Source of the DNA: Henricia sp. BOLD:AAB3569
Taxonomy: Eukaryota > Echinodermata > Asteroidea > Spinulosida > Echinasteridae
Assembly (NCBI GenBank): GCA_037783545.1
Contig: JBBELK010000836.1
Location: 111,694-175,693, forward strand
Length of the DNA stretch: 64,000 nucleotides
Direction: 5' to 3'
Position numbers and translations under genes: made by a program. Of this stretch, positions 1 to 60,600 are shown one piece after another (position 1 is the first letter of the stretch; every line of letters starts with the position of its first letter). Below the pieces are notes generated by a model. The model was not told the origin of the DNA, did no database searches, and saw only the letters and a list, made by a program, of their open reading frames with translations.

Positions 1-64
1 TATTTTTATTTCCTAATTTAGTATTTGAATCTTTTTTCCTCGACTTCCCACAGTTCTCTTTCAG

Positions 65-3000
65 TGCAGTTCCGATCCAAACTTGATACAATGCAACAAC
101 GGCGCATGCGCGGACAGAAGCCACATGTGTCTGTACGACTTCGATCAGTACGGGTATCAGACTGGTTGCCGTGACGTCACACACTTACGTTTTTGTGGTA
201 GGTGAGCAAATTTAAGGTGCATGTCTTCAAGAAAATTATTTACATGGTTTCAATTTAGAAAGTTTCATTTATTTACATCAAGTGATGTGGCTTGCACCAA
301 ACCGATTTCACAAAGAAGCATAGACAAAAGTGTCATCATTTTTAAATTGCATGCAGACAATTTCGAGTGCAGCAACAACACCTTCAAGTGTCCCGGATCG
401 TACTGCATCCCTCTCCACCGACGCTGTGACGTCATCAAGGATTGCCCTGGAGGCGTAGACGAACTCAACTGTGGTAAGAAAATATTTGTGTTCCGTCAGA
501 AACGAGGCACCTTTGACGAAATATCTATCATTTAACATCTTGAAGATGAAGCCATCATAGATGTGAACAGGCTACCAGTAGGCCTACTCTCCATTACCAA
601 GCAACCAACCCTGGAAGATTCAAAAGCTGTCTCTTTTAATTTGTTTTCCTAGTCTGCAGGCCCACGGCGTCATGGAATGTTAAGTTATGTTGCCGTGTAA
701 CACCAGCATGAGGATGAAGAAGATGAAACATCTTGTCGTTATCCTGATATATTATTGTAAAAGTTCAGCATCTGAGCCAGATTTTAGTTCCTTAAAGTCG
801 ACGATGGTATCATTTCCTGGAATATTAAAGGTAACTTCTTTTCATGTCAATTTCACTTAGATAACTACACGTGTGTCGGCCATTACCGCTGTCGTGGCTC
901 CCGGATCTGCGTGGCGCAATCGCACGTCTGTGACGGCATTAAGCAGTGTCCAGCCGGGGATGATGAGCTCTTTTGTGGTAAAACCTCGTTTTCTTTCATA
1001 TTTAGAAGTAAAATTTATGTTGCTATACGTTCCTTTCTTTCTTACAAATCACAAACAAGTGAGTCAAATGATGACAACAATTAAACATTCGCGTTAATTA
1101 CTCCGACTTCGGCATTCCCTTCACGAGTAGCCGTTGCTTCTGTCCGATAATTCAGCTTGAATGACGATTCGAAATTTTGTCCGAAGACGGAGAGAAAAAC
1201 CTAAATGCTATGTTGGGGCACCATCGTTGAATGTGGACGGTTTGTACTCCTTATGCGAGTTATAATTTTCTTCTTCGTTTTCATCCCAAAGAAGCACGAT
1301 GTCCAGAAGGTTGCTCGTGTGCCGGTCTTTCGTACACATGCACCGGGGTGAGATGGACTCCCGAAACGGCCAATCAGATACCGAGAAATGTCCGCAAGCT
1401 GTAAGTTGACCATGCAAGAGCAGAACACTTGGGACTTGTTGAACCAAAAATACAAAACGTTTCTAGTCATAGACGCATATGACGATCCGAAGAGCTGACT
1501 GTGCGGCCTTGCCGTCGCGTCGTAGACTGTACCGTCTTGAGATGCTCTGATAGTTTTGTAACATTGCGCCATGCATATCAGAATGAAGTCACTCCGACGA
1601 TTCCTTATCCTTGCAAGATTGATTAAATAAACTTTTATGACAATTCAAATTTTTTCAGTCCAAAAGCTGAAAGATTTTCACATTTCTATAATGCAGGAAA
1701 CTCCACAATCATTTTGGGGTTAGCAGACAGCGAAGAGATACAGTGGACTACAACGTGACCGTGGAATACTCACTGTATCTACCGCTTGAGGAGTTACAAC
1801 AACTTGCTGAATTGTAAGCTGTGCTGTAGACACGTAAACACCACAGATGTCAAATCGCTTCAATGTTTAAGTCCTCCCATCAATGCAGCGCGTTGCGCCT
1901 GCCACACGCACACTGGCAATGCGCTAACAGACTGCTCCACTGACTCTTGACGCCCATTGCACAACTGTGTTCAAAACGTCTCACCGGCGTTTTATAGCAA
2001 AACATTTTATTAATGATTTAATTCATGTCATTTTCTTGTTCTTGATTGCAGAGATCTTTCTGGAAATGGTATCGACGCACTGAAACCAAGAATGTTTCAG
2101 AAGCAGAATAATGTATACAAACTGTAAGTATTAGGCAAAGGTAGAACGAGGCGTATCTGAGAGCAGCAATATTACGTTTCCAAAAAGCTGACATGTGGCA
2201 TTCTCCAAGCTTAAGGTATAATCTTGTCAAATTTTATTCCATGGTTTAACAGCGTTCTGGCGGACAATAACATCAGAAAACTTGAAAACAGAACATTCGA
2301 AGGACTCCACCGGCTGCAACGTCTGTAAGTATACCTTTTCCCGATAAGTTCAGATTTGATCCCAAGATCGATTCCGATTTAGATTTTATAACAACTAAAC
2401 ACAATTTGCCAAGAGGGCATTTCAGCCCATTATACGTCTTTTTCAAAATGTATTTCTTTTTTTACTACAGTAATTTATCCGGTAACCCGCTAGTTGAAAT
2501 AGAATCTGGAGCATTTTGGGGCGTGGTTTCACTTCCGGTTTTGTAAGTATTAGCTCTTATTCTCATAGCTTTTTCTTCACATCCACCGACAAATATTACA
2601 ATATTGAAACAAAACGCACAAACGAGCACAACAATTTAAGACGGAAATGCATTTGAGTTTGAAGAAGTATATTTTTAAAATTTTTCTTTGAGTAAATCTG
2701 TACGTCATCAGCTGCTTCTTAATTAACGTGCCATTTACGTTATGGCTAAAACAAACACATTACTGTAAAAAGTGAAAAGAATATATAGTTTTTATATAGT
2801 TTTTATATATGTTTTTGGTTTTTGTTTACAGAGATCTTGGGCAACTTGAGGTGCGCCATCTACAAGACGGCGTGTTCGAAGGACTGGATGCTTTAGAAGT
2901 GTTGTAAGTTGTCCACTTCGACGTCTTAGTTTACGACTCAGATATAAGCCTTATTATGTTACAATTATTCATACGTTCCTGTTTATGATTTTTCTTGGGC

Positions 3001-6000
3001 AGAAATGTCAGAGACAATCCACTGTCGGCGGTGGAACGAGGAGCATTCTACGGACTCGATAAAACGCAGACACTGTAAGCAGAAATATAACTTATAGTAA
3101 GCTATAAAAAGTTGAGAATGTACTTATATAGACCAATCCAAGCAGCCACCATACCAGTGCGACATTTCTCTGACGCGCGCGTACTGGCTAGTTACAGTAT
3201 TCTATTGGTCGAGGGGGTATTCAACGCGTCCGTACTATCTCCACGCATGCGTCTCAATAACGGCTTCTAAGTTAGTAGTTGGCATGGACGATACAAGGCA
3301 CTATACTTAAAATAACTTTACATAGCTATCGGTAGGCCTATTACCTTTTGGCATGGACGATTATCGTATGCATTTTACGAATTGTTGACCTTGATATTGC
3401 GCACTGTTTTCTTGACCTCGTCTTCTAGGGATATACGAGGGACACACATCATCAAGGTGGACCCCGAAATGTTTGAGGGACTTGAAAGCCTGGAGACACT
3501 GTAAGTTATGCATACAGTGCTCTCTTTGTTACTGATTTTACCCCAAGGGGTCCCCGCTATTTAGCTGTAATGTGTTTCGTCTGGTATTATCTGGGATCAT
3601 CGTGGTCCACAACGGCCTCAGTAAAAGTAACCATTGCAGAAAGATGAAAATGGTACACTGGATGATCTGGGTACGAGATGACTAGAGCACGAACGGCAGC
3701 AGATTTGAATATGACTATCATGCGTTAAGTTCACCAATGCTCGAAATTTCGGGGGTACGACTTGACCTGGGTAGTCGTACCCAGGTCAAGTCGTACCCCT
3801 GTTTTGGTCACGTGATTTGGTTTTAAAAAATACTTAAGAAAATCGGCTTACCTTTTTACAGGTACGCCGACAAGTATCTGTTCTGTTGTCTTCTGGGGGA
3901 CTCCGTTGCCACTTGCGAGGCTCCCATGGACGAACTTTCCTCCTGCGAGGATCTGATGCGGAATCCCATACTCCGGGTCTTTATCTGGATCTTGGGATTC
4001 AGCGCGTTGGTCGGTAACGCATTTGTCATCGTGTGGAGGATCCGGATCAAGGATCGGGAACAATCCCGTAAGATCCAGACGTTTCTGATCCTAAACCTTG
4101 CCGTAGCGGATCTGCTCATGGGTGTGTATATGATCACCATTGCCAGTGCCGATCTTCACTACCGCAGTGATTACATGATTCACGCAGAGGAGTGGCAGGC
4201 AAGTTGATCCATTTTTTTCTTCCCTGTCCTTGCCGCAGAATCTCTCAGAATTCGCCTGTGTAATGTATAAAAATTAAGTTTGTGTTAGCCACAAAGGCTC
4301 TCTAACGACTTGTTGAGGTCAGGTAGAGCAATCAACAATTTCTTTTAGATCAAAGTTCATACGTGAACGATTGGGGTCCACGGGAAAAAGCGATCAATTT
4401 TGAGAAATTGCATATCGTCTTTCAAAGATTATTAAGATATGTGGACAATGTCAAGTTTTTGAAAGCCACCCATTAACTCTGCCATGGCTTCTTGACCTCG
4501 AACACTATAATTAGGACTTATTTTAGCTGCCTGTGGAATTGTTTCAAAATTAGGTAATATTGTGTTTGTTATTAATTTAGTACTATTAAGTACAATCCAT
4601 AACCAGATAGGTGATGGTAATAATTATATAAAAGTTGCCGAAGCATCTCTGTTGGACATTGGTTTTGAAGGAGAAAATAAAATCCTATTGAATTTTACTG
4701 CGTCTGCAAGAAGTTTACCAAGACATTTATTTTTACTTCGAGGTATAATTCCTCACGTCCGATGACCAGTCCTGGCCCGCCGTATCCCGGCAATCATAAG
4801 CCTTTCTGTCTCTATTTTGTCCAGGAAAGCATCGTGTGCCAGATGGCAGGTTTTATCTCAGTCCTTTCCAGCGAGTCATCGGTCTTTCTCCTGGTCCTAA
4901 TTACCACTGACCGATTCCTGGGCGTCGTGTTCCCCTTCAGCCGGTGGCGACTCCACACTAAATCGGCTCGCTACGCCGTGGCCGGTCTCTGGTCCATGGC
5001 GTTCTTGCTCAGCCTCCTGCCCGTCGTGCTCAAGCCGGCCTTCGGTGATCGTTTCTACGGTCGCTCCAGTGTCTGCCTGGCTCTGCCTTTTACCCAGACC
5101 AAGCTCCCAGGCTGGGAGTACTCGGTGGTCTTGTTTCTCGGCGTGAATCTGCTGGGATTTCTCGTCATCTTCATCTGCTATTTCTTCATGTACGTCGCCA
5201 TCAAGAGGGCTTCTAAACAGGTAAACATATATCAAGTTGGTGTGCTTTCAAGCTGTTGGAGTTGACGCATAACTGGACAAACGCCGCATGGCTGTGGTGA
5301 TATTTTTGAAAAACGTCAGCTGCACAATAAACAAGTTAAACTTTAAGTCGTTGGCATCAACTTTTCAACCTCTCTATAATGGTACTTTCTATAGTACCAT
5401 ATTGGTACTATAGGTTGGTAATATTCTTTTGGTGCGGAACATTGCCAGTGATGAAGCTTCTATTTGGTACACATGTCGTCCAATGAGTGATCTTGTTAGC
5501 GCTATATACAGTGTACCAACATTTCTAATCTTAAACCGGCCTCCTGCTACTACAACTGAACTCGCCTCTTCGGTGCCTTGTTGCACCAATGACCTGCCAC
5601 CATTTTCCTCTCAAACCAACATGGTGCCGCTTACAGACGTAAGGACGGCTCCTCAAAAATGACAAGGACTGGTGTTTGTGAAGTAATGTGAAAAATGGTC
5701 TATGATACACGTTTTTCATTTTTACCAACAGTGCACAAGGAAGCGAGAGCACATGGAAGAAATCAAGATGGCGACCAAGATGGGCATCATAGTCGGCACG
5801 GATTTCTTCTGTTGGATGCCCATCATTATCATGGGTCTGCTGTCCCTGTCCGGGACGACCACCATCCCGCAGGAGATGTACGCCTGGGCGGCCGTCTTCA
5901 TGCTTCCAGTCAACTCGGCTGCCAATCCATACCTGTACACCATATCTAGTCTTGATAGGTACGGAGTACATAATAAATGGCTCTCAATGATTATTTGTAG

Positions 6001-7173
6001 CGTAGAGAGAATTAAAGGATACGTGTGTGTATACTGTGCAGTACTGGCTTCTCGATCTCTACCTGTTTTTTGGGGGTTTGCTTTTTTTTGACTGGATATG
6101 TACATTTACATGTTTACAGAAAACGCAAGAAGGCAAGAACGTCCACGTCGTCTCCAACGTGGAAGACGGAATGCACACGAGACGTCAGCCAAGACTTTGA
6201 GATGGTCAAATATGCAAAACCCGATAGTAATTCAAAAGGTATGATGCTGATCCGAATTGCGTTTCATATCCCTTGTTAATGTGACTATAAGTGTGTACGA
6301 TGTGCTGCAAAATCTTTCAAAATCAGAAAACGGTTCCTGGAACATTATTTTTATCCATTTTCTTCCACTTTCATTCTGGCCAAGCAGACAACCATTCGCT
6401 GATGTCGACTGTCATAACAGACCAGATGGAGCACCGGGTCTTGCCGCTCCTCGGTAGGCGTGGCTACTCCTTCCTCCTCAGGCAATACATAGCCGAGGTC
6501 AAAACGCCGTTGGGCGTCTCTGTCGTGTCAGCCATCGAGAATGACCTCAGGAGAGCGCTAGACTTCCTCCACAAGAGCGGCATTGCCCATGGTAGGATCG
6601 ACGAGGACTTTGTCGCCATTGACAAGGTACCAACGATTTGTCTAAGATCATGTTAACAATATGGAGCACGGAAGCGGAGGCACATATATTGGCAGTTAAA
6701 GCAAATTATGTATTTGAGATTTGACAAAATGAAATCCATGTTATATCCCCTTAAGTCACAGGAATTTGGACAGAAAAAGAAATCCCTTTCAACAAATGTA
6801 CACATTGTGATCGAAGGGGATATGCCGATTTGGAAACAAACTGGTGCATGATCCAGAGGGTCACGTACAGATAGAGTGCCTCAACAGAACGTTTAATGAG
6901 TCCTTATGCCCAGCCATTTCAATTGACGCCACTATAAAAACTACCACCGCGTCTTTACCATTATGCGAACATTAAAGAGAATCTGAACGTTTTGTTCTCA
7001 CCTAGGAGCGAAAAGAAGACAGAATAGCCTTCCTGATCATGCGGGGCGAGCCCCTTGATGGGGACGATAGCAGCGGCAGTGGGGCGTCTTCGAACGAGGA
7101 GGAGGTACCGTTACTTCGACGCGATTACCGGCAGCTGGACGAGCTTCTCGCTAGATTGAGGGGATCGCACTAG
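65..7173 (+). CDS. LDLa-LRR G-protein-coupled receptor, GRL101/relaxin-receptor-like (5' partial)
   Basis: Cell-surface leucine-rich-repeat GPCR. Exons read: 65-197, 357-473, 861-977 (LDL-receptor class A modules, the first divergent), 1292-1347 (LRR N-cap, CPEGCSC), 1731-1813, six 72-nt LRR exons (2052-2123, 2253-2324, 2471-2542, 2832-2903, 3003-3074, 3429-3500), 3862-4198 (LRR C-cap, TM1-TM2), 4825-5220 (TM3-TM5), 5732-5958 (TM6-TM7), 6120-6238, 6388-6626 and 7006-7173 (tail, stop TAG). Phases close to 807 codons plus stop. TM2 holds LNLAVADLLMG, TM3 ends in TDRF, TM7 holds NPYLYTI; the TM3-ECL2 cysteines (SIVCQMAGF, SSVCLALPF) are present. TM3 onward resembles relaxin receptors, but three or more LDLa modules fit the multi-LDLa GRL101 type better than RXFP1/2, which have one. 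The 5' end is outside the window, so no start codon or signal peptide is seen. The ligand is unknown. The tail is described separately. Confidence 0.93.
3752..3801. repeat. Perfect short hairpin in a receptor intron
   Basis: Two 21-base arms beginning GGGGTACGACTTGACC are perfect reverse complements, separated by about 6 bases, in the intron before the TM1 exon. This is probably a small foldback element or a remnant of one; no target duplication was recognised. Confidence 0.7.
4199..4824 (+). other. GC-AG intron in the receptor gene
   Basis: The exon coding TM1-TM2 ends in TGG CAG followed by GCAAGT rather than GTAAGT. The next exon starts after a normal AG at 4823-4824 and continues in phase 0 into the TM3 cysteine segment. 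The joined residues (EEWQ then ESIVC) match the relaxin-receptor pattern before TM3, which supports this junction over any nearby GT. Confidence 0.75.
6388..7173 (+). other. Kinase C-lobe-like cytoplasmic tail of the receptor (two exons)
   Basis: The last two exons (6388-6626 and 7006-7173) extend the receptor about 135 residues. The text reads like a protein-kinase C-lobe. An amphipathic stretch (LLRQYIAEVKTPLG) precedes a helix ending in ALDFLHKSGIAHGRI, which matches the usual helix E plus catalytic loop pattern (ALxYLHxxGIxHxDL). A hydrophobic strand follows (AFLIM), and after an acidic linker comes RRDYRQLDELLARLRG, like helix F with its conserved Asp. The catalytic HRD Asp is replaced (HGR), no DFG is visible and no N-lobe or ATP site is present, so it cannot be an active kinase. 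This is inference from motif shape, not a database match. Confidence 0.5.
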
Positions 7174-7479: not shown

Positions 7480-7485
7480 AATAAA
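7480..7485 (+). other. Candidate polyadenylation signal of the receptor gene
   Basis: AATAAA about 300 bases after the receptor stop codon, in AT-rich sequence. It is the first canonical hexamer found downstream on the coding strand. Confidence 0.4.
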
Positions 7486-38600: not shown

Positions 38601-41600
38601 CTGATTGATATAGCTTGCATGGGAAAAAATGAATGGGGCTTGGCTAGAGGTCCATATTTCCCAGGGTTGTTTTAGATACCAAGTCATTGTATTTGCAAAT
38701 TTTATCGCAAAGGAAAGCACTGAGACCCTCGTTTTCTATGACAATTGATCACGTTCAAATGACGTCACTTCCTAGAAATTGTCACGTGCATTATGATTTT
38801 GAGCGTAATTTTTTTGTGACGCGCATCGGTTGCACCGTATTCGAACAAATTTCTAGAGTGTGCGTGCGCGTACTTTATGGCGTTTAGTATGCAGTAGCAA
38901 TTTTTTTCTACGAAGATGGCGTCTGTGAACGTGATTAATTTAAAATTTCTCTATGAAAGAAAAAAAAAAGTATCTACTTGGACTTGTAACAAGTAATAAA
39001 GTCTCACTTTTGCCTGACAGATTTACTGAGCGATCGATGATAGAAGTCAAGTCTTCCCTCTCCACTGTCCCCAAACGGCCTGAGGAACGGCCGCAGGGCC
39101 CTATAGACTGCTGACCACTTGACCGCTGGTAGTGGGTCCCCTCGGACCTTTTCATGCCCCTTGTCTTTAGACACGGGCTCCGAATTCGTCAGGATGGACA
39201 TATTATCGTCATTTCCGAGAATCGATAGCAGTTCAGTTTCTAGAAGTCCATTGGAGGAGCATTCGAGGAGTGATAGTGTTGCCACGACGAGATGGCCGCC
39301 GTTTTCTTGCTCAAAGCGGGCCAGAACTTGGCTCAACAAACTGCAAAGAACCAGATCTCTCTTAATTAGTTTAATTGGTCAAGTGGCAACATCTGTGACG
39401 CGACCATGCAAACAGTCCGACGTCGTGCAGTCTGGGATGAGTCTTTGCAACCAATTCCAGAAATCAGCGACTAATCCAGAATCATTAAAAAAAGAAAATA
39501 CAAAGGACATTCTGGGAAGTACCTGAAAAACTCGGACTTTACCCAGGTACTGCTCAGAACGTCCATTATATTTTGGCATTTTTATGTTTGGTGCCCCCAA
39601 GCATCTCCAAGTTTCCCATTGTTTTCCCCACTCACTTTAGTAATCCGTCAGCTAACTTGTTGATCTTGCTTGTAATGGTTCGGAAGTCACCGTAAACACG
39701 AAGCTCTTCGCACGCGATGGCCAGCCACAGAGGATTCTGGGAAGACTCTTTGCCCATCAAGCTTGCCGTCTGCTCAGCGTCCAGTTTCTTGTTGTATTGA
39801 CCCAAAATCTCTTGGACTATCTCCTGTTGGGACAAAAGAACGATAATTAAAAAGCTCACTTGCTAGATGTTAGTGAATATAATCTCACCACTATGCTTCA
39901 TTCGCTACTTGCACATATTAAACTGTCATAGTGGCAAATCAGGGATATATACGCATGAACATTATTGACTCCCTTGTGTTGTTATGTCTGTTGCTGTGAC
40001 GTTGGCCCTTTACTTGATTTTGTGGGTTCCCACATGTTTGCGCATATGGGCCTTTTTCCAAATTCGTCTCCGGCTCAATGTGGTTTACATGGAGCCTGAG
40101 CCCAAGTCGAAAAAGGCCAAGGTTTTGCTCCAAACTCCGGAGAGAAGAGAAATGTTCAGTTCTATGTGGCCATCGGGGTGCATTTTTGGAAGCTGAACCC
40201 GGACCATAAGAAAAAAAGATCATATAAAAGGACTGTCCAAAAGACAAGTGGTGTCGAGGTAAACTTAAAAAGTCCTTGCAAATTTAGGAGACAAGTTTCA
40301 AGTGAAGACCTTGCCAAGACATGTTTTGACCAACAAACCTTTCTGGATTCCATATCAAGCGGTGTAACGGCCAGCTCCTCGGGTTTCAAGTTCCGATCTT
40401 TTAGCAGGCGATGAGGCGGGGTATCATCAATCATGGAAAAGATACACCGCACCTGGGGAGCTAGTTTCCGTGGCAACCAGCTTAAAATAGACGCTGCTTT
40501 GTCTTCATTTAGCTACAGGAACAATGGAGAAATGTACAGTTGAACCTCGATAGTAACGGGTGTCGATTTCACGAAGCGCTTTGATCCTACGTAACTCAAG
40601 ATACACGTTAGTCAAGACAAATGTTACGATAGTTTACCCATCTCCACTGCTGTTACAAAGCGCTTCGTCAAATTTATTTTTTTCAATTCACCTTTTGCGT
40701 TTACACTTATTAGCGCCGACTCGGCTTCAACTCGCCTTTTTGGAAATTGCAGAGTTCGATTCGGCAAAGGTGAATCGAGTGTAAATGGGCCTTTAGAAAG
40801 AGTTATTCATCTTATCTTGATACCAATACTACGTGTAGGATCAATCCCAAGATCGATCCCTGATCCCTGATCAACAATCTTACCTGATTAAGAGCATCAA
40901 TAATGATGATGACTGGACTTGAGTTGGGATTAGATAAGACACTGCCGACAAGTTGAGCTGCAGTTTCATAGTCTTTGGGCATGTTAGAATCCTGAGGGGA
41001 AATAATTAAAAAAATTAAGTGTTGAACTGTTTATTTCCGCGATGGATATCTCTCAAATGATGTCACTGCCTGCAGATTGTCACATGCATCAGGCTCTGGA
41101 TTTTTGGCCCTTTTCTAAATCTTGGCTCCGTCTTCAGGCTCCAGCTTCATGCGGCTCCAGCTTCATGCGGCTCCGGCTTCATGCAGCTCCGGCTCGAACC
41201 GGCTCTGGTCTCATTTCAGCGAAGCGAAACCAAAAACCGTTTGGAACACTAGTCGGGCCTAGTAGGCCTACCATTCTTTTTCACCGGCTGTTTTTTTTAA
41301 GCGCTAGCAGACGAGATTTGTCGGCGGCAAAGTTTAGCAAACTTGCAAAAGTTCACAAATGTTTTGTTGCCGTCACGTGATTTTCCAGTTCATGACGTCA
41401 AGAAGTCGGCCGAAGTCACCTCTTTAGTTGACTTCGTTTTGGAGCCTCATTTGGGCCAAAACGAAGCCTCAAAATGAAGCCTAAAGCCGAGCCGAAGTTT
41501 GGTATGCGGGTTCAAGATGGCGGAATGGAGACGGAGCCGGAGCCGAGATTTGGAAAAAGGCCTATGTGATGTGCATCTGCTGTACTGTACTTCGAACAAA

Positions 41601-52870: not shown

Positions 52871-54367
52871 CTATGGTAACGCAGTGTGGTTTTGCCAGAT
52901 GAGGTTCAGGACAGGAAAATTTGGCAATCTGTTCGACTCTTCGGGGTTCCGAGTTCTGTTGTTCAAAGCTTCCTCGATGCATTGCAGGGTCACGGGGTCA
53001 AAGCTATATTGGAATTTATTAGCAAATAAATGAGGCTGTTTAGCGAGATACTCCAAGTAAGCTATACCGAAGACGCAAAGACCGCGGACGTATTTGCCAC
53101 GACACGGTGGGTGCGTTTTGATGTCACCCCACTTCATGAAACGAACGTTCTCATCCCAAGTTGGGTTGGGGAAACCCCCTGGTGTACCGTGCGTCCGCTG
53201 TAAGGTGGCCCAGTAATGTTCATCCGGGCTGTATGTGTCTTTAGACCACTCTAAGAGGTTGATACCAACCCGACTGGTCAGCACGTACTCGGCAAAGTGC
53301 CTGGTTGCCGCGTAGTACGCGTTGCCGAAGTGGATGGTCAGATTGTGCGGTGGAGGCGCTTTGAGTTTCTTGGTTCGGGTAACGTGCCGGTTTTTGACGA
53401 TGTGATGATACCGTGTCCTTCCGGTAATGTAAGACGGTGGCTTGATACCCGTGATGTCATTGTGACATTTGTAGGCCTTCAACTGCCGAACAATCTCCAA
53501 GTTCGTCTTCAAGGGGAAATCCTGCCCACACAGGTTGATGACAAACTTCCACCGATAAACGGCGCCTCGAGGTCCCACCAAGTCTCTCATGCAGTTGATA
53601 TCTGCTAGAAGTCTCGTGAAGCCGGCGTACTGCACGTCTTCCGTCTTCGACGCTATGAAGACATTCGGGAAGCAACGGGCAAGTCCTTGGATTGCCTCCT
53701 TGAAGGCCAAGGGGGACTTGGCGTCGGGGTGGAGGCAGTAGAGGTTCTGAGGTTGGTATATCGCTCGGAGGAGGCGTTCCACCTGAGCAGACTCCTTGTG
53801 GACAACGATGATATAGGCCAGGGGAAAGCCAGCTTCGTCCTCGGTAGCTGGGTTTGTTGGGTAATACCGGACGCGTCTGTAGCGATCACAGTAATGCGTC
53901 CAGCCTTGGACCGCGGTATCATCCGGTACGGCGATCGACCCATTCCCAGTTAATCGCTCTTTCCGCAACGTCTCATACACCGCCCGAATAACACCTTTAT
54001 CTCCAGAAAATATAGCTGCACATTCGGTTTCCCAGTGTCGGTGGAAAGAGGACACGAATGCGTTACCTGAAGGAATTAAATCATAACGTGCATGCACCTG
54101 TTTTTCTTGACGATTTGACGGCTTGTCAAGATGATGGTGTTTTAGATGCAAGCCACCGTTCTTATCGTATCCCTTGTTCTTTTGGTAATCTGGTAATGAT
54201 TTAAAAAGACCAGAAAATGTCTGATGTCCTTCGTTCTTACCTTTGTGTTCCGGTTCATATAGAAGTATCATCATCAGCTGGAGAAACCCACATAACGCGC
54301 ACAGACACACGACCCAACCGAAGAATCGACGGCGGCGTGGACAGCAATTAGATGCATGCATGTTCAC
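52871..54367 (-). CDS. Beta-1,3-galactosyl-O-glycosyl-glycoprotein beta-1,6-N-acetylglucosaminyltransferase (GT14, GCNT family)
   Basis: Golgi enzyme that transfers GlcNAc from UDP-GlcNAc in beta-1,6 linkage to make core 2 or core 4 O-glycans or I-type branches. A single uninterrupted exon codes 498 aa, as in vertebrate GCNT1, GCNT3 and GCNT4. Type II topology: short basic cytoplasmic end (CCPRRRR) then a signal anchor at about residues 15-36 (FFGWVVCLCALCGFLQLMMI). The lumenal catalytic domain shows the family motifs AYIIVVHKESAQVERLLRAIY, NLYCLHPDAKSP, INLCGQDFPLKTNLE, TYSPDEHYWATL and CVFGIAYL. Sequons NGS, NLT, NRT and NHT are possible N-glycosylation sites. Two Met codons lie at positions 1 and 3, and either could be used. 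The branch specificity (core 2, core 4 or I) cannot be told by eye. Confidence 0.97.
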   Translation of the reverse strand: MNMHASNCCPRRRRFFGWVVCLCALCGFLQLMMILLYEPEHKGKNEGHQTFSGLFKSLPDYQKNKGYDKNGGLHLKHHHLDKPSNRQEKQVHARYDLIPSGNAFVSSFHRHWETECAAIFSGDKGVIRAVYETLRKERLTGNGSIAVPDDTAVQGWTHYCDRYRRVRYYPTNPATEDEAGFPLAYIIVVHKESAQVERLLRAIYQPQNLYCLHPDAKSPLAFKEAIQGLARCFPNVFIASKTEDVQYAGFTRLLADINCMRDLVGPRGAVYRWKFVINLCGQDFPLKTNLEIVRQLKAYKCHNDITGIKPPSYITGRTRYHHIVKNRHVTRTKKLKAPPPHNLTIHFGNAYYAATRHFAEYVLTSRVGINLLEWSKDTYSPDEHYWATLQRTHGTPGGFPNPTWDENVRFMKWGDIKTHPPCRGKYVRGLCVFGIAYLEYLAKQPHLFANKFQYSFDPVTLQCIEEALNNRTRNPEESNRLPNFPVLNLIWQNHTALP

Positions 54368-54640
54368 GTCACCACGCCGGTGTCGCTTGCGGTTTGTGTA
54401 TTACGCCTAATAATTCCAAACATTTCATGCCGTCTTTACATTGTGGTGTTGGACGGACATCTCGCTGCATGCCTACAAAATCGGACAACAATGTTGATAA
54501 ATTTTGGCGAAGTTTCTTTTTCGTGATGGGAACTGAACGATGGATGGAAACTGAAAGATGGATGGCAATTGACAGCCAAAGTATTAGTACCCTGATGACC
54601 AATGACTCGTTTGCGCCCCAACTATACCAACAGTCCCAGT

Positions 54641-57660: not shown

Positions 57661-60600
57661 CTAGTTGGGTTCGAATGGATCACACTTGTAGGTGACGTCC
57701 AAGTACTTGAAGGTCCCTCTACATGGGTTGAATCGTAACTTTCGGTTCGACACTCGGATGGAGCAGTCACGGAATCCCTCACAGCGACGCTTCAGCTAAA
57801 AGTCAAATCGAAACCAAACCACTTGTATTTCAAGTACAGGACTAGTATAAGTACCGTCTGCAAGATCATTTCAAATTTCCAATTTTTTCTATTAAATTTC
57901 TGGGGAAACCCCGTTTACCTTTTTTAGGTACTAAAGGAATGTTGGTAAGAAAGCTAACCCTCCATTTTTTAAATAATTTGTTTTTGTTTGTTGGGTTGTT
58001 TGTTTGTTTGTTTTTTTTTGTTTGTGGTGGTGAGGGGGCGGGGGTGGGGGACATCTCAGTCTAAATTCCCTCCGAATTGCTATTTCTCAAATTGACGCAT
58101 GCTGCACTTATGTGCAAAAATGCTCAGTGTGAATCCACCTTAAATGTTACCTTCTTCATGATGCGTTTTTGCGGAGCTTGGCAGTTGATGTCGAATATGC
58201 TTCCCAGAGAGCTTGGGCAAACCTCGCTGCCCGTTTGACGTCCGTAGTTTGCGTTCACAATCTTGATTCGCGTGCCTGCCCTGCACTGCAACATGAGGCG
58301 TCGTTGTTGACATGCGCGGATGTGAACCACCGCCCCTGGTTGCACCTCCTGCACCACCGGTTCGTCGGTGCACATGTAGTTCACAGTCAGGACGTTATCT
58401 CTCGGGGAACAAGTCTCGCCGAAGCTGTACGCGGATGCGGTAACCGACATGTAGCTGCCGTCGCGCCTGACGTGATTTGCTAAGATGTCTGCCGCGTTGC
58501 CTGAAGAGCAGTCGGGGTCCGTAGTGGTACCCTGACTCTTCAGATCACGATAACTGTAGTCAGCCGAGAAGATGTTTATCTTGCGGTCGCCGCAGTCAAT
58601 GTGCAGAGCCTCGCCTTGGGATACTTCTTTGCTCTCGATGTGCTGAGAATCTGTCATGAACACAAGTGACGTTAGTGCACTGCATAATAACACATTTTAG
58701 ATTGTCACGTTCAGTATATGGACCAAGACATGATGACATAATGTGTCAGAGGTCTCGGGTTCAAATCCCCATGAGAATTACATGGTTGTTCTCTCACCGA
58801 GTAAAGTAACAAATATGTTGTCATATTGAATACTAATTAATTATTATTTTTTTTTTATTTTTAAATGTTTAAATTTATTTATTTTTTATTATTTGTTACT
58901 TATTCGTTAATATTTTTCCCCCTGCCCAACGCCACCTCCCCCCACCCAACAACTCCAAATGCCCCCTTTTCCCCACCCCTAATACCCTCCTCCATTCCCA
59001 CTCCCACAGAGGCACACTTGTCTAGAAAAGAAAGTTGGGTCACATGGTGCCACCATACACTCGTTATTTAATGTTTCATTCACCGTACAAGCTTTCAAAT
59101 CTTACGAGATGGTTATTTTACAGGGTTGTAGACGAGCCCATCACAAGTCCATCACAAGTCCCTGGGTCTTAATTCCAGTCCCAAGCTATTCAAATGAACT
59201 CCAACAAAGGCATTATTTTGTGCGTGTTCATCCTTTGCTTCTTGTTACTGGACTTGTGCGGGACTTGTCACGGACTTGTGATTTTACTGGCTCTGGATTT
59301 GTGAAACCCCCTTTGTACAACCCCCTTATCTAAACTCACAGTAGCATTGTTTTCCATTGCCCACGTAATTAGCATTACACACACAGCCCTGTCTGTAGCT
59401 CATTACTCCACAATGAGCATTTTCATCGCAGGTTAACGGTAGTTCATTCCAGCCACCTCCGGGCAAGCAGACGTATTGACCGCTACACTGGTCATTTACG
59501 GCTCGTCGTCTGGGCTGTAGGGGAAACATGAATATGTGTCAAGTAACCATACTCTCGTTTGAAGGTAGGTCTACTTGTTTGGTAATTATTATCTTTAAGC
59601 TTACTTGTTATCTGAATGGTAATGGTAGTAATCATCCTGTGAAATTATTTTGTCTGAATTGCCCCATTCATGAGAAAAAAATGACAAAACTATTTGAATC
59701 TCAAAATCACCTGTAGGCGATCTTTGGAGCCATTTATTTTTGCACAAAAACCGTACTTGGATTTTCTAGGTTTTCTGGAGTATTACTGCATCTATATTTG
59801 GCTGAAATTTCTCGATCTATCGTTTTAATTACAAGTGGAAATTATGCCCTTTTTAAAACAAGTATACTACCTTTAAATACCACTCATAGAAGCCTCTTTT
59901 CTGATATAAAGTGGTTGCACTTTGCCGCAGTCACCAAACTCTCCCGTGTTTGTCCTCCAGAAGAGAGAGAGAGGAACAATAGAGCACGTACGTATCTGCA
60001 CGTGGCTCTATTGTTCTCTCTCCATCTGGGAGTTTAAGTGGCCCGTAACAGCATAAACTGCCCCATAAACATAGTAAAGGATAGTTCACATGGTGCAACC
60101 GCAAACCGTTTATTTGCCATGCGAATACAGCTTTTTGACATCAAAATCACCTTCCTTTTGAAATTCGCAAGAACTATGAAACAGACTTAATTAGTAGCGC
60201 ATCAACCATCAACTCATCCCAAATAAGACAATGTTACCTTGTAGTAGATTCCGAGCCGATTACACCCACATTTAGACGATGTCAGGCACTGGTCTCTGTC
60301 TTGTAAGATTTCAGGATCTTCACAGGTGCAACCTTCGTAACACCTACAAAGATGAAACAGTTCCTTGTAAGATGACGGTAAACATTTTAAAGAGTTTGTC
60401 AAAGATGGGTACGTGGTCTAGTGGTTTAGTTAACTGACTTGCAAAATGTGGTGTTTGAAACCAGACGATTAACCCCAATAGATAGTTATCACGGTGCGGC
60501 CATCTTCCCTTTTCTCCTATTAAAATAAACGAACCATAGCGAGGCTTGCAGAAGAAAATGAATAGTTGTGGCCGTGTTGAAAATGTTCATTGTGTGCATC

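What the first reader, a model, noticed from the sequence alone, without database searches (positions are those of the whole stretch)
6388..7173. GPCR with a degenerate kinase-C-lobe-like tail
The sequence shows, after TM7, ALDFLHKSGIAHGRI and later RRDYRQLDELLARLRG, spaced like helix E/catalytic loop and helix F of protein kinases, with the catalytic Asp, the DFG and the whole N-lobe missing. A 7TM receptor ending in a mini-pseudokinase would be an unusual signalling fusion. I do not know whether GRL101-type receptors of other invertebrates share it.
Basis: partly seen in the sequence, partly recalled or inferred. Interest (0 to 1): 0.75.

Follow-up and report, generated by a model that had tools for sequence, protein, structure and literature searches.

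The report
Hormone-type receptor with kinase-like tail
An animal cell-surface receptor related to hormone receptors ends in an inner tail that weakly but repeatedly resembles the middle of a dead protein kinase, which would be an unusual fusion if relatives confirm it.

Summary
Three tail exons (6120-6238, 6388-6626, 7006-7173) join in frame behind the 7TM exons of a GRL101/relaxin-receptor-type gene (7tm_1 E=1.2e-35; best solved relative RXFP1, E=4.8e-86, alignment ending at TM7). Kinase resemblance is confined to one stretch: helix D, helix E, catalytic loop, beta-7 (about 6477-6626 plus 7006-7026). In PADLOC (5027 models, not chosen for kinases, but the fourth library tried) the whole tail hits only MkoA (E=0.0023) and PD-T4-6 (E=0.045). 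Both matched models also match PKA, and HGR falls on HRD. Reversed tail, six shuffles and the other tail parts hit nothing. Directed profile P is 1e-3 to 1e-5. Against: no kinase hit in Pfam, NCBIfam or PHROGs; low-confidence exon-5 model without a Foldseek match. The helix-F claim fails: no score, spacing 52 residues against 56-80 in 45 kinases. Conservation is untested. HRD, its Lys and its Asn are lost, so no kinase activity is expected. Likeliest: a kinase-derived, dead docking tail (0.55); main rival: chance resemblance (0.33). My searches listed no bilaterian GPCR-kinase fusion.

The parts
360..474 (+). LDL-receptor class A repeat exon
   Evidence: Ldl_recept_a E=3.8e-9; exon read
859..979 (+). 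LDL-receptor class A repeat exon
   Evidence: Ldl_recept_a E=3.2e-6; exon read
1297..3500 (+). LRR N-cap and leucine-rich-repeat exons, mostly one repeat of about 72 nt per exon
   Evidence: LRR_8 E=3.1e-32 on the spliced ectodomain; exons
3862..4198 (+). 7TM exon 1 (hinge, TM1-TM2); donor CAG|GCAAGT is a GC donor
4825..5220 (+). 7TM exon 2 (TM3-TM5; TDRF in place of DRY, TM3 and ECL2 cysteines present)
   Evidence: 7tm_1 E=1.2e-35 on spliced protein; motif names recalled
5732..5958 (+). 7TM exon 3 (TM6-TM7; CWMP, NPYLY)
   Evidence: RXFP1 alignment ends here
6120..6238 (+). tail exon 1 (basic helix-8-like start, no clear kinase signal)
6388..6626 (+). tail exon 2, holding the kinase-like helix D-helix E-catalytic loop-beta7 stretch (from about 6477)
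6588..6596 (+). HGR at the place of the HRD catalytic triad
   Evidence: register
7006..7173 (+). last exon: start of the beta8-like stretch, acidic Ser/Glu loop, C-terminal stretch RRDYRQLDELLARLRG, stop TAG
   Evidence: helix F claim not supported

Best explanation
It is a GRL101-type leucine-rich-repeat receptor (LDLa repeats, LRRs, rhodopsin-type 7TM) whose 174-residue cytoplasmic tail contains a stretch descended from a protein kinase C-lobe: helix D, helix E, catalytic loop, beta-7 and perhaps beta-8. Shown: gene structure, receptor class, the localised kinase signal and its register, and replacement of HRDxKxxN by HGRxDxxF, so no phosphotransfer is expected. Inferred: the stretch no longer works as an enzyme but is kept as a docking surface on the helix D/E side, binding a signalling or sorting partner after ligand-driven 7TM activation. 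The acidic Ser/Glu loop with EEVPLL and YRQL (sorting-motif look-alikes, recalled consensus) would set phosphorylation-dependent internalisation.
For: PADLOC (5027 models): whole tail hits MkoA E=0.0023 and PD-T4-6 E=0.045; the 58-aa core hits MkoA 7.6e-4, PD-T4-6 0.029 and a second MkoA model 0.032. PKA and a bacterial kinase (L004) both hit PDLC03920, 04052 and 04053; on PDLC04052 the tail His and the PKA HRD-position residue both fall on column 136. Exon 5 alone, straight from DNA, gives both families (0.014, 0.022); six shuffles give none; reversed tail, N-part and C-part give none. Directed profiles: P 4.8e-5, 1.2e-5 and 5.4e-4, 1.2e-3. Core segment: 0 of 7194 overlapping windows from 200 six-frame E. 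coli ORFs reach its score in any of four profiles. PDB phmmer: 9 of 14 weak hits are kinases, matched at the same place, against 0 of 4 for the reversed tail. JAK JH2 pseudokinases carry HGN for HRD (PMC6287396, passage).
Against: No Pfam kinase hit at E<=10 for the tail or six pieces; none in NCBIfam or PHROGs. PADLOC was the fourth library scanned and holds many kinase models (a true kinase hits 37); over 87,593 models in all, the whole-tail hit would have E about 0.04. The 58-aa core was cut after seeing the signal. PDB matches are weak (best 0.23), and a non-kinase (HisF) tops the shorter query. N-part and helix F show no clear signal, and both spacings lie outside the kinase range; a C-lobe without helix F is unlikely to be stable (inference). 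Exon-5 model: pLDDT 57, no strand, a short helix where beta-7 should be; Foldseek 0 matches. kin1 is the weakest profile: matched by 28 of 20000 shuffled tails, 5 of 5000 shuffled cores and 6 of 1775 E. coli windows. Among windows of locus ORFs not counted as kinases, 2 scored above the tail in kin0 (257 reported) and 2 in kin1 (300 reported); I did not check what they are.
Confidence: 0.55

Rival explanations
1. Ordinary, fast-evolving LGR tail: mostly disordered or helical, carrying sorting and phosphorylation motifs; the kinase look is a chance match of an amphipathic helix followed by H-x-x-hydrophobic.
For: LGR tails are described as poorly conserved (PMC4079206, passage). No kinase hit in Pfam. 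In 30 simulated windows the exon score was reached by 1 to 15 ORFs, depending on profile. The other tail pieces have no clear kinase signal. The exon-5 model is all helix and loop.
Against: The two families hit in a library not chosen for kinases are both kinase-bearing, in correct register, with shuffles and reversal negative. 0 of 7194 E. coli ORF windows reach the core score in any profile.
Confidence: 0.33
2. The rest of the kinase exists in other exons or isoforms; this is one product of a receptor-kinase gene.
For: GPCR-kinase fusions exist in choanoflagellates and sponges (PMC12716839 section 26). Only one splice path was reconstructed here.
Against: Among 185 plus-strand ORFs of 15 aa or more between 3501 and 12000, the next best after exon 5 score 3.9 and 2.8 bits with mix, a level expected by chance among 850 window ORFs; those two, at 9.8-10.2 kb, hit no PADLOC family. 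HGR already lacks the catalytic Asp.
Confidence: 0.07
3. The stretch comes from another protein-kinase-like family with HGD-type loops (APH, RIO, Bud32; recalled) rather than a eukaryotic protein kinase.
For: HG in place of HR; those loop motifs are recalled.
Against: Pfam, which holds such families (recalled), gave no hit to them; the PADLOC models hit also match PKA.
Confidence: 0.05

Closest known systems
GRL101 / type C2 LGR (Lymnaea GRL101; ambulacrarian and molluscan GRL101)
   Same: LDLa repeats, LRRs, rhodopsin-type 7TM close to relaxin receptors (PMC8286064 passages)
   Different: A 174-aa tail with a kinase-like stretch; none of the GRL101 passages I saw, from 4 of the 20 papers that hold the word, mentions such a tail
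Relaxin receptor RXFP1
   Same: Best solved match, E=4.8e-86 over LRR and 7TM
   Different: Alignment stops at the end of TM7; no tail aligned
GPCR-TKL/K and GPCR-TK of choanoflagellates and sponges; GPCR-kinases of oomycetes and amoebozoans
   Same: 7TM followed by kinase-type sequence in one polypeptide (PMC12716839 section 26)
   Different: Those carry a recognised kinase domain; here only a degenerate C-lobe stretch on a rhodopsin-type LGR. [quoted passage not shown] the Discussion passage also counts GPCR TKL/Ks among families found in metazoans
JAK JH2 pseudokinase
   Same: HRD replaced by HG-x (HGN in JAK JH2, PMC6287396 passage; HGR here)
   Different: JH2 is a two-lobed domain; here no clear N-lobe signal

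Membership tests
GRL101 / type C2 LGR | multiple LDLa repeats | tested here: met
   two Pfam LDLa repeats in the window; the gene runs off the window's left edge
GRL101 / type C2 LGR | leucine-rich repeats before the 7TM | tested here: met
   LRR_8 E=3.1e-32, three stretches
GRL101 / type C2 LGR | rhodopsin-type 7TM nearest to relaxin/glycoprotein hormone receptors | tested here: met
   7tm_1 E=1.2e-35; RXFP1 then TSHR best among PDB chains
GRL101 / type C2 LGR | placement inside the GRL101 clade of a tree | not testable with these tools
   no animal genome or protein collection at hand beyond PDB chains
Protein kinase / pseudokinase domain | profile match at family threshold (Pfam Pkinase) | tested here: not met
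   0 families at E<=10 for the tail; for six pieces only a non-kinase Cdc6_lid match at about 0.09, in two of them
Protein kinase / pseudokinase domain | helix E-catalytic loop-beta7 sequence | tested here: met
   weak but specific:
Protein kinase / pseudokinase domain | catalytic residues (HRD Asp, its Lys and Asn) | tested here: not met
   HGRIDEDF in place of HRDLKPEN
Protein kinase / pseudokinase domain | N-lobe | tested here: not met
   N-part reached by 74, 312, 836 and 826 of 5000 shuffles in four profiles, 0 PADLOC families; MVK to His spacing 77 against 86-100 in 44 kinases
Protein kinase / pseudokinase domain | helix F at kinase spacing | tested here: not met
   spacing 52 against 56-80 in 45 kinases; no score
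Protein kinase / pseudokinase domain | kinase fold | tested here: inconclusive
   exon 5 alone, single sequence, pLDDT 57; Foldseek 0 matches
GPCR-TKL/K, GPCR-TK | complete C-terminal kinase domain behind a 7TM | tested here: not met
   only a C-lobe stretch

The most novel reading that the evidence does not exclude
A lineage of bilaterian GRL101-type receptors carries a kinase-derived, catalytically dead C-lobe module on its cytoplasmic tail: a GPCR-pseudokinase fusion outside the known oomycete, amoebozoan, choanoflagellate and sponge cases, perhaps with relatives that still hold a fuller kinase domain.
Probability: 0.3. Interest if true: 0.75.

Novelty: new variant of a known kind. Interest (0 to 1): 0.48.

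Why it matters
A 2025 survey (PMC12716839, section 26) found GPCR-kinase fusions in choanoflagellates and, for tyrosine-kinase types, in sponges but not other animal lineages, and states that to its authors' knowledge none has been functionally characterised. GRL101 has been proposed as a second receptor for IGF (PMC8286064, passages). A kinase-derived tail on such a receptor would link two receptor worlds and offer a simple test of how a kinase remnant on a GPCR tail is used.

Tried and rejected
A full degenerate kinase running from tail exon 1 (FEMVKY as beta-3) to helix F was my own stronger reading; the N-part and C-part carry no clear signal and the spacings fall outside the kinase range, so I dropped it. 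Further kinase exons nearby: nothing above the chance level. Relatives: no receptor relative found in genome contigs or viral contigs. Paralogs inside the window: none; besides the exons themselves, tblastn at E<=1 gave only one match, at E=0.45. A HisF match at 0.0034 is spread over four poor segments of an internally repeated protein and was taken as spurious.

Literature: ten searches; some lists were capped (20 of 1,944, 10 of 15, 8 of 30). Papers seen as passages: PMC8286064 (12 of 16 places), PMC12297450, PMC6267866, PMC4079206, PMC6930252, PMC11291487, PMC6287396; one paper as passages (12 of 16 places) plus one named section: PMC12716839. The other papers were seen only as search listings.

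Full report
What is there. The window carries animal-type genes; no genome is held for it. From its left edge to 7173 on the plus strand runs a receptor gene: LDLa exons, LRR exons, three 7TM exons and three tail exons. The spliced 7TM matches 7tm_1 at E=1.2e-35. The best solved relative is relaxin receptor 1 at E=4.8e-86, then the thyrotropin receptor; the RXFP1 alignment ends at the end of TM7. With LDLa repeats, LRRs and this 7TM it is a GRL101-type LGR; no tree could be made. One 7TM intron has a GC donor (CAG|GCAAGT at 4198/4199, read); the other 7TM and tail introns are GT-AG in phase.

The tail is part of the gene model. Exons 6120-6238, 6388-6626 and 7006-7173 join in frame. The two finding exons have GC3 of 0.76 and 0.66, like the 7TM exons (0.68-0.75); tail exon 1 has 0.51; the introns around them have 37-40% GC. 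AATAAA signals follow at 7480 and 7580. No transcript data were available.

Directed kinase tests. I made four profiles: kin0 (32 bacterial domains plus PKA), kin1 (124 domains, bacterial and viral-contig plus PKA), euk (13 recalled kinase domains) and mix (those 13 plus the 32 bacterial ones). The tail scores 9.0, 4.3, 5.7 and 11.1 bits, with single-comparison P of 4.8e-5, 1.2e-3, 5.4e-4 and 1.2e-5. Shuffles reaching the score: 1 of 20000 drawn for kin0 and 28 of 20000 for kin1 (12973 and 14313 of them gave a reported score); in the second run 0 of 5000 for kin0, 9 of 5000 for kin1, 1 of 5000 for euk and 1 of 5000 for mix. The aligned stretch is tail residues 77-126 (kin0), 72-108 (kin1), 85-120 (euk) and 70-126 (mix). 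Shuffles of the 58-aa core reached its score 0, 0, 0 and 5 of 5000 times for euk, mix, kin0 and kin1; the N-part (74 aa) was reached by 74, 312, 836 and 826 of 5000, and the C-part (42 aa) by 460, 1068 and 761 of 5000, kin1 giving no C-part score. So only the N-part in euk has even a nominal signal (about 0.015). The exon-5 ORF ranks first of 850 ORFs of the window in all four profiles. In 30 simulated windows its scores were reached by 1 (mix), 15 (euk), 1 (kin0) and 5 (kin1) ORFs. In overlapping windows cut from 200 six-frame E. coli ORFs the whole-tail score was reached 0, 0, 0 and 6 of 1775 times (mix, euk, kin0, kin1), and the core score 0 of 7194 times in all four. Among windows of locus ORFs not counted as kinases, 2 beat the tail in kin0 (257 reported scores) and 2 in kin1 (300 reported), at 11-14 bits; they may be kinase pieces of the kinase loci, which I did not check.

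Undirected tests. Pfam gave nothing for the tail and only a Cdc6_lid match at E about 0.09 for two of six pieces; NCBIfam and PHROGs gave nothing. PADLOC (5027 models of bacterial defence proteins) gave two families for the whole tail, MkoA at E=0.0023 and PD-T4-6 at 0.045, and three models for the 58-aa core, best 7.6e-4. PDLC03920, PDLC04052 and PDLC04053 are also hit by PKA at 2e-23, 9.6e-27 and 1.7e-37, so the matched models contain kinase domains; the third core model (PDLC03921) is not among the 25 of 34 rows shown for PKA and is not verified. The library is rich in kinases: a true bacterial kinase hits 37 models. Register: on PDLC04052 the core's residues 14-47 lie on 117-150 and a PKA loop fragment's residues 4-37 on 125-158, which puts the tail His and PKA's HRD-position Tyr on column 136 (equal spans, gaps assumed absent). 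Controls: reversed tail, N-part and C-part 0 families; three shuffled tails and three shuffled cores 0 families; exon 5 straight from DNA hits both families at 0.014 and 0.022. Counting all four libraries (87,593 models), the whole-tail match corresponds to E about 0.04. PDB phmmer is weak: 9 of 14 hits of the 135-aa tail are CK2 or MNK kinases at the same spot, best E 0.23; the reversed tail gives 0 kinases of 4 hits; a shorter query gives 13 kinases of 16, but HisF tops the list.

What the stretch has lost. HGRIDEDFVAID stands where PKA has YRDLKPENLLID: the catalytic Asp, its Lys and the metal-binding Asn are all replaced (residue roles recalled). JAK pseudokinases carry HGN for HRD (PMC6287396 passage), so HG-x is a known kind of decay. 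My own idea of an N-lobe starting at FEMVKY fails likewise (77 against 86-100 in 44 kinases).

Structure. Exon 5 alone as a single sequence gives pLDDT 57.4 with helices at residues 3-23, 25-37, 40-62 and 75-78. The second and third lie where kinase helices D and E would be, the third at about 75 pLDDT; the last lies where beta-7 should be, and no strand is predicted. Foldseek finds no PDB match. At this confidence it neither supports nor refutes the fold.

Relatives and print. No relative of the receptor was found in the collections I could scan. In my ten searches (some lists capped) I saw no title or abstract start that describes a kinase-like tail on GRL101. GRL101 passages seen from 4 of the 20 papers that hold the word do not mention one; two of these papers, on snails and on crown-of-thorns starfish, do not hold the word kinase in the main text. 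One LGR survey says the tail was not considered in detail because it is poorly conserved (PMC4079206, passage). [quoted passage not shown] the same paper's Discussion counts GPCR TKL/Ks among families found in metazoans (passage). I have an unverified memory that some database entries of GRL101-like proteins carry kinase-like annotations; that is a lead only.

Mechanism. Best reading: a G-protein-coupled LGR whose tail keeps a kinase-derived, dead helix D/E-catalytic-loop piece as a docking surface, with an acidic Ser-rich loop and sorting-type motifs (EEVPLL, YRQL; consensus recalled) controlling traffic. Gene structure, receptor class, localised kinase signal and loss of catalytic residues are shown; docking, traffic and any ligand are inferred.

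Noticed in passing
52871-54400 (-): Long single-frame core-2/I-branching glycosyltransferase gene (Branch, E=9.1e-49).
   Followed up: no
58124-58696 (-): ORF with two SUEL (galactose/rhamnose-binding) lectin stretches (E=6.1e-9).
   Followed up: no
39004-39378 (-): ORF weakly matching the NWD1-like winged-helix domain (E=6.9e-5, below the curated cut-off).
   Followed up: no
52-201 (+): A further LDLa-looking cysteine-rich exon at the window's left edge, not scanned against Pfam.
   Followed up: no
4199-4824 (+): GC-AG intron (CAG|GCAAGT) inside the 7TM region, between TM2 and TM3 (read).
   Followed up: partly
7006-7173 (+): The last exon codes an acidic Ser/Glu run followed by EEVPLL and YRQL, which look like acidic dileucine and YxxPhi sorting signals (consensus recalled).
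   Followed up: no
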